A DNA stretch of 34,902 nt from the NCBI RefSeq assembly GCF_000716545.1, contig NZ_JNWZ01000073.1, positions 1 through 34,902 of the forward strand. Reading direction: 5' to 3'. A program made the position numbers and the translations under genes. The notes beneath the pieces are model-generated. The model made no database searches. It was not told the origin of the DNA and was given only the letters and a program-made list of their open reading frames with translations. Below are positions 6,733 through 10,559 of this stretch, piece after piece; within the stretch, counting starts at the first letter, position 1; every line of letters starts with the position of its first letter. The stretch is from Kitasatospora phosalacinea. GTDB lineage: Bacteria > Actinomycetota > Actinomycetes > Streptomycetales > Streptomycetaceae.

Positions 6733-6754
6733 GGCAGGGCCTACACGCCCTGCC
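6733..6754. terminator. Hairpin between two convergent genes
   Basis: GGCAGGGC (6733-6740) pairs with GCCCTGCC (6747-6754) over a 6-nt loop that contains the stop codon of the minus-strand DUF2398 gene. It could end transcription from both sides. Confidence 0.5.
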
Positions 6755-8153
6755 GGTCCCGTTCCCGCCCCGGCGCGGGGACGGTCGCCGGGCGGGAGTG
6801 CCGACCGCTGCCCGCGGGGGGCTCGGGTTCGGCGCGGGGGGCGTAGCGGGCGGCGGGGGCGCGCAGCAGCCAGGTGCGTCCGGCGGGGGCGGCGAGGCCC
6901 ATCCGGTGCAGCAGGTCGAGCGCGTCGCGGCGGAAGGCGGCGAGGTCGGCGAGGTAGCCGGCGTCCCAGCCGGCGCTCATGCCGTAGTCGTCGGTGATGT
7001 CGCCGAGGGTGCCGTCGATCAGTGCGTCGGGGACCAGGACGGCGGGCGGCGGGGTGTCGGTGCCGACCGGACGCAGGTCCTCGACCAGGCGTTCGGCGAG
7101 CAGCAGCGCGGCCTGGGCGAGGGTGCCGGGGCCCGGCAGGGCGAGGTCGGTGAGTTCGTCGGCGGGGTCGAGCAGGGCGACGCCCTCGGCGCGGATCTCG
7201 GCGGTGAGGCCGAGCAGTTCGGCGAACCGCTCCGTCTCGGCGGGGGCGGCGGCGAGCAGGTGGGCGCGTTCGGCGGGCGCGAGGTCGTGGTGGAGCACGA
7301 CGGGCGTCTCGGCGAGCAGTCGGCGGACCGTCACCTCCGGTCCGGCGGCGGGCAGCGGGGGCGCGGTGAGCAGGTCGGCGGCGAGCGCGGCGGGCGGCCG
7401 CCAGTCGTCGAGCAGGGCGCGGACGGCGGGCGGGGCGGCGGCGGGCGGGACGGCGCCGGCCAGGGCGCGGGCGAGCGCGGCGTACCCGGCGGGGTCGAGG
7501 CCGGGCAGCGGGCGGCCGGGCAGCGGGCCCTTGTGCAGGCGGGCGTGGGCGGGGCCGAGGGTGAGCCGGTAGCCGAGCAGGGCGCGGAAGCGTTCGGCGA
7601 GCACCTCGGCGTGACGGCGGATCAGGGCGAGTCCGGCGCCGTGCGGTCCGTCGGCGGTGACCAGCGGGTGGGCCATCAGCAGCCGGGCGGCGGTGCGCAC
7701 TTCGCCGGCGGCGTCCGGGCGTTCGGGTTTGCGGTGCCGGCCGCCGCCGGTGGGGCGGGTGCCGGCCTGGACGGGCGCTTCCCGGCGTATCCGGCGGTAG
7801 CCGAGCGGTCGGAACAGCGGCGAGGTGCTGTGGTGGACGGTGGGGCCGTGCCACCAGCTGGTGCCGGGCGCCGGTTCGGCCTGCCGGGGCGCCCCGCCGA
7901 GGTGCCTGGCCCCGTACGCGCCGAACACCGCGCTGGCCAGCAGGTCCGCCTCGGCGGGTTCGGCGGCGGCGAACCGGGCGGCCAACTCCTCGGCGGCCGC
8001 GACGACTTCGGCGCCCGGACGGTCCTGCGGGCGTGCCTGCGAGCGCGTCCGCGGGCGCGCCTGGTCGGCGAGCCGTCCGGCTCCGCCCGTGCGCCCCGTC
8101 CCCGATCCGCCGGCCGCCGCAGCGACTTCGACGGCTGCTCGCTGCCGCTCCAT
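6741..8153 (-). CDS. Orphan DUF2398/TIGR02678-like protein (JetB-type family)
   Basis: A 470-residue protein. From about residue 155 it follows the TIGR02678/DUF2398 pattern: AARLLMAHPLVTAD, LIRRHAEVLAERFRALLGYRL, ETPVVLHHDLAPAERAHL, LTAEIRAEGVALLDP (318-330) followed by ELTDL, and a C-terminal LLHRMGLAA then RAPAARYA. As I recall, this family is the JetB (KITE-like, winged-helix) part of type II Wadjet SMC plasmid-defence systems, normally beside DUF2397 (JetA), an SMC-like JetC and DUF2399 (JetD). None of those is in this window. The winged-helix region between residues 210 and 280 looks shorter than usual, and there is a 150-residue Ala/Arg-rich N-terminal extension with a SWWHGPTVHHSTSPLFRPLG patch. 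TAGGCT sits 9 nt before the ATG, so the mRNA is probably nearly leaderless. Confidence 0.7.
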   Translation of the reverse strand: MERQRAAVEVAAAAGGSGTGRTGGAGRLADQARPRTRSQARPQDRPGAEVVAAAEELAARFAAAEPAEADLLASAVFGAYGARHLGGAPRQAEPAPGTSWWHGPTVHHSTSPLFRPLGYRRIRREAPVQAGTRPTGGGRHRKPERPDAAGEVRTAARLLMAHPLVTADGPHGAGLALIRRHAEVLAERFRALLGYRLTLGPAHARLHKGPLPGRPLPGLDPAGYAALARALAGAVPPAAAPPAVRALLDDWRPPAALAADLLTAPPLPAAGPEVTVRRLLAETPVVLHHDLAPAERAHLLAAAPAETERFAELLGLTAEIRAEGVALLDPADELTDLALPGPGTLAQAALLLAERLVEDLRPVGTDTPPPAVLVPDALIDGTLGDITDDYGMSAGWDAGYLADLAAFRRDALDLLHRMGLAAPAGRTWLLRAPAARYAPRAEPEPPAGSGRHSRPATVPAPGRERDRQGV

Positions 8154-8241: not shown

Positions 8242-9120
8242 ATGCCACACCTGCCCGATGTCGTGCTCTGGTCGATACCGGCCTTCGTGCTGCTCACCGT
8301 CCTGGAGCTGGTCTCGTACCGGTTCCATCCGGACGAGGACGAACAGGGGTACGCCGCGAAGGACACCGCGACCAGCCTGACCATGGGCCTGGGTTCGCTG
8401 CTGTTCGACGCGGGCTGGAAGATCCCGATCGTGGCGGTCTACTCGTTCCTGTACGAGCTGACGCCGCTGCGGGTGCCGGTGCTGTGGTGGACGGTGCCGC
8501 TGATGCTGCTCGCCCAGGACTTCTTCTACTACTGGTCGCACCGCGGCCACCACGTGGTGCGGATCCTGTGGGCCTGCCACGTGGTGCACCACTCCAGCCG
8601 GCACTACAACCTGTCCACCGCGCTGCGCCAGCCCTGGACTTCGGCCACCAGTTGGGTGTTCTTCGTGCCGATGGTCCTGGCGGGCGTGCACCCGGCGGCG
8701 CTGGCGTTCTGCTCCTCGGCGAACCTGGTGTACCAGTTCTGGATCCATACCGAGCGGATCGGCCGGCTGCCCCGCCCGGTCGAGTACCTGTTCAACACGC
8801 CCTCGCACCACCGGGTCCACCACGCCTCCCAGGGCGGCTACCTGGACCGCAACTTCGGCGGCATCCTGATCGTCTTCGACCGGCTGTTCGGCTCGTTCGC
8901 GGCCGAGGCCGAGCGCCCGGTGTACGGACTGACCAAGAACATCGGCACCTTCAACCCCCTGCGGGTCGCCACCCACGAATACGCCTCGATCGCCCGGGAC
9001 ATACGGGGAGCGAGCACCTGGGGCGACCGGCTGCGGCACCTGACGAAGGGGCCCGGCTGGCACCCCGCGCCCCGCACCGAGACCACCGCCGCCACCGGAC
9101 CGGAGAGTGCCGCCGCATGA
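8242..9120 (+). CDS. Alkylglycerol monooxygenase-like membrane hydroxylase (fatty acid hydroxylase/sterol desaturase superfamily)
   Basis: A 292-residue integral membrane di-iron enzyme. The eight-His pattern is complete: H100 and H104 in SHRGHH, H113, H116 and H117 in HVVHHS, and H190, H193 and H194 in NTPSHHRVHH, with an extra His in YQFWIHTE (H169). Beyond the generic superfamily motifs it shares HHSS..YNLSTALRQ, YQFWIHTE, NTPSHHRVHH, VYGLT and KGPGWHP with vertebrate alkylglycerol monooxygenase (AGMO/TMEM195) as I remember it. That enzyme cleaves the O-alkyl bond of ether lipids to a fatty aldehyde, using tetrahydrobiopterin. The bacterial substrate and cofactor are unproven. The stop overlaps the YhhN start (ATGA), so the two are co-translated. 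The start has a -10 box 7 nt upstream. Confidence 0.85.
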   Translation: MPHLPDVVLWSIPAFVLLTVLELVSYRFHPDEDEQGYAAKDTATSLTMGLGSLLFDAGWKIPIVAVYSFLYELTPLRVPVLWWTVPLMLLAQDFFYYWSHRGHHVVRILWACHVVHHSSRHYNLSTALRQPWTSATSWVFFVPMVLAGVHPAALAFCSSANLVYQFWIHTERIGRLPRPVEYLFNTPSHHRVHHASQGGYLDRNFGGILIVFDRLFGSFAAEAERPVYGLTKNIGTFNPLRVATHEYASIARDIRGASTWGDRLRHLTKGPGWHPAPRTETTAATGPESAAA

Positions 9121-9827
9121 CTTCCCTCCGCGACCCGCGCACCGCGCGGGCCCTGCTGATCGCCTTCACCGTCGTCGCGGCCGCGCACCTGCTGGCGATC
9201 GTCTTCGGGATCAAGCCCCTGCAGTACGGCACCAAGCCGCTGCTGATGCCGCTGCTGGCGGGCTGGGTGTGGGCCCTCGCGAAGCCCGGCACGCCGAAAC
9301 TGCTCGTCCCCGCGCTGCTGTTCGGGGCGGGCGGGGACATCCTGCTGGAGATCGGCGGGGCGGTGGCGTTCCTGGCCGGGATGGGCTCGTTCGCGGCCGG
9401 CCACGCCTGCTACGTGACGATGTTCGTCAAGCTGGGCGCGTTCGCCGACCGCCGCCGGGCGCTGCTCCTCGCGGGCTGCTACGCGGTGCTCTGGGCCGCG
9501 CTGATCGTGCTGCTCTGGCCCGACCTGGACGCGGGGATGCGCGTCCCGGTGGCGCTGTACAGCCTGCTGCTGGCCTCCACCGCGGTGACCGCCTCGCAGG
9601 TCAACGTGCGGGCGGGGCTGGGCGGGGCGCTGTTCCTGTTCTCCGACACCCTGATCGCCACCGACCTGGCGGACTGGCGGCACCTGCCCGCGCACGGCTT
9701 CCTGATCATGGCGACGTACCTGGCCGGCCAGTACCTGCTGACGGTCGGCACCCTGGAGCGCACCGGCGGCGTGGAGCGCAGCGACGGCGCCGAGCGCGGC
9801 CGCGGCGTGGAGCGCGCCGCCTCCTGA
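9117..9827 (+). CDS. YhhN/TMEM86-family membrane protein, probable lysoplasmalogenase
   Basis: A 236-residue, very hydrophobic protein with about eight membrane segments and YhhN hallmarks: KPLLMPLLA near residue 40, LFGAGGDILLEIGG, FAAGHACYV, and a late ALFLFSDTLIATD. The family includes TMEM86B and bacterial lysoplasmalogenases that hydrolyse the vinyl-ether bond of lysoplasmalogens to fatty aldehyde and glycerophospho-headgroup; the conserved Asp residues are thought to be catalytic. The ATG overlaps the preceding stop by 4 bases, giving translational coupling with the AGMO-like gene and a shared lipid role. The last 20 or so residues are a polar tail with a GVER/GAER repeat (VERSDGAERGRGVER), probably cytoplasmic. 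A strong terminator follows. Confidence 0.85.
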   Translation: MTSLRDPRTARALLIAFTVVAAAHLLAIVFGIKPLQYGTKPLLMPLLAGWVWALAKPGTPKLLVPALLFGAGGDILLEIGGAVAFLAGMGSFAAGHACYVTMFVKLGAFADRRRALLLAGCYAVLWAALIVLLWPDLDAGMRVPVALYSLLLASTAVTASQVNVRAGLGGALFLFSDTLIATDLADWRHLPAHGFLIMATYLAGQYLLTVGTLERTGGVERSDGAERGRGVERAAS

Positions 9828-9850
9828 GCGTGCGGGAGGGCGGGACGCGA

Positions 9851-9880
9851 AAGGGCGGCACCCTCGCGGGTGCCGCCCTT
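9851..9880. terminator. Strong terminator after the AGMO-YhhN operon
   Basis: AAGGGCGGCACCC (9851-9863) pairs perfectly over 13 bp with GGGTGCCGCCCTT (9868-9880) across a TCGC tetraloop. It lies between two convergent transcripts and may act on both. Confidence 0.9.
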
Positions 9881-9916
9881 CCTCGTGCCGTCGGCCGCGT
9901 GGGACGCGCGGCCTGC

Positions 9917-9947: not shown

Positions 9948-10559
9948 TCAGGAGGCCCGGCCGGTGGCCGCGCCTCGGCGGCGCAGCAGCCAGAACCCGC
10001 CGATGCCGGAGCCCACCAGCGCGGCGCCGACGGCCAGTCGGGTGCCGTCCATGCCGACCGAGCCGCCCAGGCCGGTCTCCACCCCGCCGTGCGGGATCTG
10101 GGCGCCCTCCCAGACGCCGGCCCCGGCGGCCGCGCCGCTGGTGGCGCCGCTGGTGGCGCCGCTCACGCCGGCGGCCGCGATGGCCACCGCACCGACGAAG
10201 CCGTCCCCGTTGGGGCACTTGCCGTCGATGCCCCAGGACGAGTCGGTGGTGGTGCGCTTGGCGGCGGCCGCGGCCATCTCCTGTTCGGAGATGACGGTGG
10301 CGCTGCCCGAGTACTTGCCGTCGGGGCCGACTCGGAGCGTGGTGGAGCCGCCGGCGAAGGCCAGTGAGGTCGCGGTGACTGTCTTCTCCGTGCTGCTCGC
10401 GCACGTGACACTGACCGAGACCGACTGCCCGGGCTGGGCCTGCGCGGGAGAGACCCAGGCGGGCTCGCTGCCCTTCGCGGACGCGGGGGCGGTGCCGGCC
10501 AGGCCGAGCAGGACGGTGGTGCCGAGCAGTGCGGCGGCGGCGGTGCGCGTCGGGCGCAT
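9948..10559 (-). CDS. Secreted, C-terminally membrane-anchored protein, unknown function
   Basis: A 203-residue exported protein. Residues 1-28 are a signal peptide (basic MRPTRT, hydrophobic core, cleavage after ASA). The next 90 residues look like a small beta-rich domain of the sort seen in Streptomyces surface proteins: PGQSVSVSVTC and CPNGDG carry two Cys that could form a disulfide. Then comes a low-complexity Gly/Ala/Ser linker with GATSGATSGAAAGAG. The end has VETGLGGS, a hydrophobic segment (LAVGAALVGSGIGGFWLL) and RRRG, the layout of a sortase-like or simple membrane anchor; VETG is not a clean LAxTG. GGAGG 6 nt before the ATG supports the start. Similar short proteins are common in Streptomyces, but I know no function. 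Confidence 0.8.
   Translation of the reverse strand: MRPTRTAAAALLGTTVLLGLAGTAPASAKGSEPAWVSPAQAQPGQSVSVSVTCASSTEKTVTATSLAFAGGSTTLRVGPDGKYSGSATVISEQEMAAAAAKRTTTDSSWGIDGKCPNGDGFVGAVAIAAAGVSGATSGATSGAAAGAGVWEGAQIPHGGVETGLGGSVGMDGTRLAVGAALVGSGIGGFWLLRRRGAATGRAS

What the first reader, a model, noticed from the sequence alone, without database searches (positions are those of the whole stretch)
8242..9827. Candidate bacterial ether-lipid cleavage operon: AGMO-like hydroxylase coupled to a YhhN lysoplasmalogenase
The first protein shares several extended motifs with vertebrate alkylglycerol monooxygenase, and the second belongs to the TMEM86/YhhN family. Both known activities cut sn-1 ether bonds and release fatty aldehyde: one the alkyl ether, the other the vinyl ether. 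Their genes overlap by four bases. Aerobic actinomycetes are not known for making plasmalogens, so the substrate may be environmental lipid, a host lipid, or an unrecognised own ether lipid. AGMO needs tetrahydrobiopterin, whose bacterial equivalent here is unclear.
Basis: partly seen in the sequence, partly recalled or inferred. Interest (0 to 1): 0.7.

Follow-up and report, generated by a model that had tools for sequence, protein, structure and literature searches.

The report
AGMO-like hydroxylase and lysoplasmalogenase gene pair
Two overlapping genes of a soil actinomycete resemble the enzymes that cut the two kinds of ether bond in lyso-ether lipids, and the same two families sit together in distant bacteria, so they probably work together to break such lipids down.

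Summary
A 292-aa fatty-acid-hydroxylase protein (8242-9120) overlaps a 236-aa YhhN protein (9117-9827) by four bases. The hydroxylase is 40% identical to human AGMO (sequence recalled) over 302 columns and barely resembles sterol desaturase or carotenoid hydroxylase. YhhN carries all eight residues tested in human TMEM86A/B.

The pairing is not chance. Of 147 genomes of the order, 98 hold both families and 79 have them adjacent. The pair recurs in Micromonospora and Nonomuraea. Of 149 genomes of a Bacteroidota class, at least 18 have YhhN just downstream of long AGMO-like proteins, whose relatives group with human AGMO.

The window's hydroxylase is a short variant without AGMO's C-terminal membrane domain, and it has valine where AGMO has the glutamate needed for tetrahydrobiopterin. 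Pterin dependence should not be assumed. The known plasmalogen desaturase was not found in this genome, so lipid from outside is the likelier substrate.

Best reading: a two-enzyme module that cleaves alkyl and alkenyl lyso-ether lipids to fatty aldehydes. Activity is inferred; the one bacterial AGMO-like enzyme described in what I read cyclises a pigment. I found no report of the pairing in the library searched.

The parts
8242..9120 (+). Short AGMO-like membrane hydroxylase, 292 aa (P0001)
   Evidence: PF04116 98.5 bits; 40% identity to recalled human AGMO; AlphaFold model pLDDT 90.7
8539..8592 (+). First histidine motifs H100, H104, H113, H116, H117; V105 stands at the AGMO pterin-glutamate site E137
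   Evidence: alignment of 127 AGMO-like sequences
9117..9827 (+). YhhN-family protein (lysoplasmalogenase family), 236 aa (P0002)
   Evidence: PF07947 118.7 bits; K40, G73, D74, H96, G169, S176, D177, Y201 present
9117..9120 (+). ATGA start-stop overlap of the two genes
9851..9880 (+). Hairpin with a 13-bp stem after the second gene, before the convergent gene; possible transcript end
   Evidence: fold of 9828-9905, z -3.6; the pattern scan, which asks for a T run, lists no terminator-like site here

Best explanation
A two-gene unit for cleaving lyso-ether lipids. The membrane di-iron hydroxylase (a short AGMO-like form) hydroxylates the C1' carbon of an sn-1 alkyl chain; the hemiacetal falls apart to a fatty aldehyde and the glycerol or glycerophospho part. 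YhhN adds water to the sn-1 vinyl ether of lysoplasmalogens and releases the same kind of products. By published work on their relatives each enzyme needs a free sn-2 hydroxyl, and AGMO does not take vinyl ethers, so the two together would cover both kinds of sn-1 lyso-ether lipid. The lipids most likely come from outside the cell. The hydroxylase of the window probably does not take its electrons from a pterin held by the AGMO glutamate. Shown here: families, residues, conserved pairing. Inferred: the reactions, the substrate source, the electron donor.
For: 40% identity to AGMO and kept AGMO-type residues Q162, D233, N235 besides the eight histidines. YhhN residues kept. Adjacent in 79 of 147 genomes of the order, both present in 98, one alone in 10, neither in 39. 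Both present in 26 of 224 genomes of the class outside the own family, 8.5 expected. In 149 genomes of a Bacteroidota class at least 18 adjacent pairs, all with long AGMO-like forms, and YhhN in 36 of 47 genomes with a listed long form against 2 of 38 without. Human AGMO groups with ten such long forms at 100/100. Complementary substrate rules: PMC3617469 passages, PMC9052158 section 6. PF10520 (CarF/PEDS1 desaturase) found in 1 of 46 genomes, not in this one.
Against: No activity is shown. E137, Y236, W243 and the C-terminal domain of AGMO are not kept, and alanine at Y236 or W243 and loss of the end after R405 inactivate human AGMO. The bacterial AGMO-like enzyme PRUB680 does another reaction. 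In most of the class outside the own family the two genes are both present but not adjacent (2 of 26), and part of that co-occurrence comes from two well-sampled families (without them 10, 22 and 4). Close hydroxylase relatives without adjacent YhhN exist (10 of 86).
Confidence: 0.5

Rival explanations
1. The hydroxylase acts on another molecule (an own membrane lipid, an acyl chain or a natural product), and YhhN deals with a lyso-lipid by-product or is coupled for another reason.
For: PRUB680, an AGMO-like enzyme of Pseudoalteromonas rubra, cyclises prodigiosin (PMC6667630 passages). The pterin-site residue varies widely (Val 62, Arg 28, Glu 20 of 127), and some genomes of the Bacteroidota class carry 5 to 7 AGMO-like genes, which suggests varied substrates.
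Against: The recurring partner is YhhN in two phyla and in separate hydroxylase clades, which points to ether lipids.
Confidence: 0.25
2. The two enzymes act in sequence: the hydroxylase makes a vinyl ether (desaturase-like) or a hemiacetal from an alkyl lyso-lipid and YhhN finishes the cut.
For: The FAH superfamily holds desaturases as well as hydroxylases (general knowledge); overlapping genes; loss of the pterin glutamate and of the C-terminal domain while YhhN stays; PF10520 not found in these genomes though YhhN is present.
Against: No case of such a sequence is known to me; AGMO's product is held to fall apart by itself; the AGMO-like proteins that keep the glutamate pair with YhhN too (L117, L119, L125).
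Confidence: 0.12
3. The pair turns over an own, unrecognised ether lipid of actinomycetes.
For: Wide retention among streptomycetes.
Against: PF10520 was not found in this genome (1 hit in 46 genomes, Corallococcus). A paper on S. coelicolor membrane lipids contains no word beginning with 'ether' (PMC4686642, term search). Other routes to ether lipids were not searched for.
Confidence: 0.1
4. The hydroxylase is a sterol C5-desaturase or carotenoid hydroxylase, as several databases name its relatives.
For: Names of relatives; in the tree yeast ERG3 fell inside the AGMO-like part, on a branch of length 8.75.
Against: 22 bits to ERG3 and 20 to CrtZ (both recalled) against 181 to AGMO; a tree that keeps ERG3 out of the AGMO-like group is not rejected (p 0.365); AGMO-type Q162, D233 and N235 kept.
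Confidence: 0.02

Closest known systems
Alkylglycerol monooxygenase (AGMO/TMEM195, EC 1.14.16.5)
   Same: 40% identity over 302 columns, eight histidines, H201, Q162, D233, N235, D244
   Different: No pterin glutamate (V105), Phe at Y236 and W243, no C-terminal membrane domain PF24858; lies outside the clade of human AGMO with long Bacteroidota forms
YhhN/TMEM86 lysoplasmalogenases (EC 3.3.2.2), incl. those of Legionella and M. tuberculosis
   Same: PF07947 118.7 bits; all eight proposed active-site residues
   Different: No feature tested here differs; activity and topology untested; the genetic partner is new to me
PRUB680, AGMO-like prodigiosin cyclase of Pseudoalteromonas rubra
   Same: Described as AGMO-like, bacterial (PMC6667630 passages)
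   Different: Its sequence was not compared; its substrate is a pigment
Ornithine lipid hydroxylase OlsE (NF052566)
   Same: Same superfamily, the only NCBIfam match
   Different: 37.1 bits against a cut-off of 475
Yeast fatty acid 2-hydroxylase Scs7p (4ZR0, 4ZR1)

Membership tests
AGMO | FA_hydroxylase domain with the eight histidines and H201 | tested here: met
AGMO | Q162, D233, N235, essential and absent from the other FAHs compared | tested here: met
   of the three outgroup rows only L050 has N at the N235 site
AGMO | Y236 and W243, essential in human AGMO | tested here: not met
   Phe at both; Phe at the W243 site in 4 of 127, at the Y236 site in 60 of 127
AGMO | Glutamate E137 needed for tetrahydrobiopterin binding | tested here: not met
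   V105
AGMO | C-terminal membrane domain PF24858 | tested here: not met
   recalled human AGMO 124.7 bits, window protein no match at E<=1
AGMO | Groups with human AGMO in a tree | tested here: not met
   Human AGMO with ten long Bacteroidota forms at 100/100, window protein in an actinobacterial part; all lie together apart from other FAHs
AGMO | Pterin-dependent cleavage of alkylglycerols | not testable with these tools
   needs an assay
YhhN/TMEM86 lysoplasmalogenase | YhhN domain | tested here: met
   118.7 bits, cut-off 25.6
YhhN/TMEM86 lysoplasmalogenase | Eight conserved residues (seven change activity when mutated) | tested here: met
   assigned by motif pattern from PMC11994398 section 15, TMEM86 itself was not aligned
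YhhN/TMEM86 lysoplasmalogenase | Eight transmembrane helices | not tested
   no topology call was made
YhhN/TMEM86 lysoplasmalogenase | Lysoplasmalogen hydrolysis | not testable with these tools
   needs an assay
Sterol C5-desaturase / carotenoid hydroxylase | Clear sequence similarity to a characterised member | tested here: not met
   22 and 20 bits, recalled references
OlsE | NF052566 cut-off | tested here: not met
   37.1 of 475 bits
FA2H-type di-metal hydroxylase fold | Structural match to Scs7p | tested here: inconclusive

The most novel reading that the evidence does not exclude
Bacteria own a general two-enzyme ether-lipid cleavage module, AGMO plus YhhN, from which the animal pair AGMO/TMEM86 may descend. 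In streptomycetes the hydroxylase has no pterin glutamate and no C-terminal domain and works with another electron donor, possibly handing a vinyl-ether or hemiacetal intermediate straight to YhhN.
Probability: 0.15. Interest if true: 0.85.

Novelty: new variant of a known kind. Interest (0 to 1): 0.6.

Why it matters
Ether-lipid breakdown in aerobic bacteria is little described in what I could read. AGMO could not be purified as of a 2013 review (PMC3617469 passages); short bacterial forms with a natural partner might give tractable protein. Forms with Glu, Val or Arg at the pterin site, all found beside YhhN, allow a direct test of how AGMO gets its electrons. Some relatives named 'C-5 sterol desaturase' in actinomycetes would need renaming.

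Tried and rejected
Natural fusions: P0068 (439 aa, both domains) and locus L124 (one open frame over both domains) looked like fusion proteins. In P0068 the YhhN part is cut short, and in L124 the hydroxylase end is out of frame with its relatives, so both are read as frameshifted sequence, not as evidence.

AGMO's C-terminal domain as a relic of YhhN: no similarity in a profile comparison, probability 0.3% (one recalled sequence against 32 rows).

Cofactor recycling: pterin-4a-carbinolamine dehydratase PF01329 is in 53 of 56 genomes, this one included, so it decides nothing. Synthesis of tetrahydrobiopterin was not searched.

First AlphaFold job with 36 close relatives failed (pLDDT 48); 57 diverse rows worked. 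Foldseek alone gave no match at E<=0.001. A hunt for recurrent third genes was swamped by shadow frames of high-GC DNA. YhhN in viral contigs: nothing. PDB sequence searches: no related chain.

Yeast ERG3 in the tree fell inside the AGMO-like part on a branch of 8.75. That would speak against my reading, but the tree that keeps it out is not rejected (p-AU 0.365), and pairwise scores are near zero. The trees leave it out, and also L050, another long row.

YhhN elsewhere in the genome: of 10 close hydroxylases (>=480 bits) without adjacent YhhN, 8 genomes have a YhhN at another place and 2 have none. Seven of the eight were read (L171-L177); they form one look-alike group with Gln at the H96 site that also occurs in two genomes without the hydroxylase, so they are not independent support.

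Full report
What is there. The window lies in a 7.6-Mb genome of 226 contigs; the nearest relative of the first protein is from Kitasatospora cineracea, 95% identical. ORF 8242-9120 encodes a 292-aa protein with FA_hydroxylase (98.5 bits); ORF 9117-9827 encodes a 236-aa YhhN protein (118.7 bits). Stop and start overlap in ATGA. A hairpin with a 13-bp stem follows at 9851-9880 (z -3.6 for 9828-9905) before a convergent ORF ending at 9948; a scan that asks for a T run lists no terminator. The upstream ORF 6741-8153 is divergent. So this looks like a two-gene unit; transcription was not tested.

How it differs from AGMO. Among 127 AGMO-like sequences (47 from genomes of the order, the window's included, and 80; near-copies not removed) the eight histidines, H201, D233, N235 and D244 are invariant and Q162 is kept in 124. 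The E137 site is Val in 62, Arg in 28, Glu in 20, Asn in 4, Gln in 3, Leu in 2 and other in 8. In human AGMO alanine at E137 raises the Km for tetrahydrobiopterin 18-fold (PMC3617469). The window has V105. It also has Phe at the Y236 and W243 sites, both essential in human AGMO; Phe at W243 is seen in 4 of 127. PF24858 scores 124.7 bits in recalled AGMO and does not match the window protein at E<=1. Human AGMO ending at R405 has lost its function (PMC7911779). So the protein is AGMO-like, but membership in AGMO proper is not claimed.

What YhhN is. All eight residues proposed as catalytic are present: K40, G73, D74, H96, G169, S176, D177, Y201. I assigned them by motif pattern; TMEM86 itself was not aligned. 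In TMEM86A and B seven of the eight changed activity when mutated (PMC11994398 section 15). Over 97 relatives (some genomes twice) G169, S176, D177 and Y201 are in all, K40 and D74 in 96, G73 in 95; the H96 site is His in 79 and Gln in 17.

Is the pair more than chance? In 147 genomes of the order 105 have the hydroxylase at 200 bits or more, 101 have YhhN, 98 both, 7 only the hydroxylase, 3 only YhhN, 39 neither; in 79 YhhN lies downstream on the same strand within 1.5 kb. By score against the window: 76 of 86 at >=480 bits are adjacent, 0 of 2 at 380-480, 0 of 9 at 340-380, 3 of 9 at 300-340, 0 of 3 at 200-300. In 246 genomes of the class, with 22 listed genomes of the own family set aside, 38 have the hydroxylase (E<=1e-30), 50 YhhN and 26 both, where 8.5 are expected; 2 of the 26 are adjacent (G199, G327). 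By genus 10 are shared of 16 and 24 in 104 (p 2.5e-4). Without two well-sampled families the numbers are 10, 22 and 4, so kinship drives part of this. None of the loci from Bacteroidota, Pseudomonadota, Myxococcota or Acidobacteriota has one; these proteins end at most about 40 residues after the domain. The profile used was built from streptomycete YhhN and could miss distant ones.

A second phylum. I searched 149 genomes of the class of the L137 genome (an uncultured Brumimicrobium, phylum Bacteroidota; in GTDB terms presumably Bacteroidia). 85 have an AGMO-like hydroxylase (E<=1e-30), 43 YhhN, 38 both (Fisher 3e-7, not corrected for kinship). At least 18 have YhhN downstream on the same strand within 3 kb of the domain, 14 of them within 650 bases; in all 18 the hydroxylase frame is 405-442 aa. 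YhhN is in 36 of 47 genomes with a listed 400-470-aa form and in 2 of 38 without one (hydroxylase rows cut at 150, so some long forms may be unlisted). Ten long forms were read. They align with human AGMO from residue 35-43 to 396-440, thus into or through its C-terminal membrane region (177-263 bits); PF24858 reaches 18.0 and 19.9 bits in 2 of 6 scanned, under its cut-off of 28.3. Nine of ten keep the glutamate; L189, adjacent to YhhN, has Val. In the five read with their YhhN the space from stop to first ATG is 6, 45, 119, 234 and 518 bases. Human AGMO and these ten form one clade at 100/100, while the window sits in an actinobacterial part; adjacency to YhhN needs at least seven changes on well-supported branches, gains or losses. 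So YhhN stands beside AGMO proper, beside short actinobacterial forms with the glutamate (Micromonospora) and beside forms with Val or Arg there.

How it most likely works. AGMO takes sn-1 alkyl lipids with a free sn-2 hydroxyl and rejects vinyl ethers (PMC3617469). YhhN of M. tuberculosis takes sn-1 alkenyl lysolipids, needs the sn-2 hydroxyl and no oxygen (PMC9052158 section 6). Both release a fatty aldehyde; passing through the same hemiacetal is my inference from the chemistry. The pair would clear both kinds of lyso-ether lipid. PF10520 (CarF/PEDS1) was found in 1 of 46 chosen genomes, the myxobacterium Corallococcus, and not in this one; a review calls plasmalogens in aerobic bacteria exceptional, myxobacteria apart (PMC9131029 passages). 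This favours lipid from outside. With E137 absent, another electron donor, or another way of holding a pterin, is likely.

Limits. No activity is shown. PRUB680 shows that AGMO-like enzymes can do other chemistry (PMC6667630 passages; the original paper was seen only in reference lists). Library searches on AGMO with bacteria, YhhN, lysoplasmalogenase, operon, Flavobacteria or cycloprodigiosin (20 of 373 listed; 13: 20 of 45; 17: 15 of 15; 64: 6 of 6; 104: 1 of 1; 109: 6 of 6) showed no title or abstract start about the gene pair; only the papers named here were opened, as passages or single sections. Papers under other licences are not held.

Noticed in passing
window 6741-8153 (-): One 470-aa ORF carries a piece of JetA (DUF2397, residues 57-108, 44 bits) and the end of JetB (DUF2398, residues 269-449, 201 bits) of Wadjet type II; both TIGR models are far below cut-off. 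It looks like a shrunken, fused remnant.
   Followed up: partly
window 9948-10559 (-): Secreted-looking protein with a GVDTG C-terminal sorting domain, 29.4 bits against a cut-off of 29.
   Followed up: no
L101, L102, L105, L108: In four Streptomyces loci YhhN after the hydroxylase is only a short fragment (L101, L102) or in two pieces (L105, L108); decay or sequencing errors.
   Followed up: no
L140, L153, L156, L158, L159: Mycobacterial relatives, 45-47% identical to the window protein, all have Arg at the AGMO pterin site.
   Followed up: no
L117, L119, L124-L126, L180, L181 against L002-L031: YhhN beside hydroxylases with Glu or Arg at the pterin site mostly has Gln where the window's YhhN has catalytic His96; L039 has His. 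The two sites may change together.
   Followed up: partly
G456, G422, G418, G451, G496, G529: Some genomes of the Bacteroidota class carry 5 to 7 AGMO-like genes at E<=1e-30, which suggests a spread of substrates.
   Followed up: no
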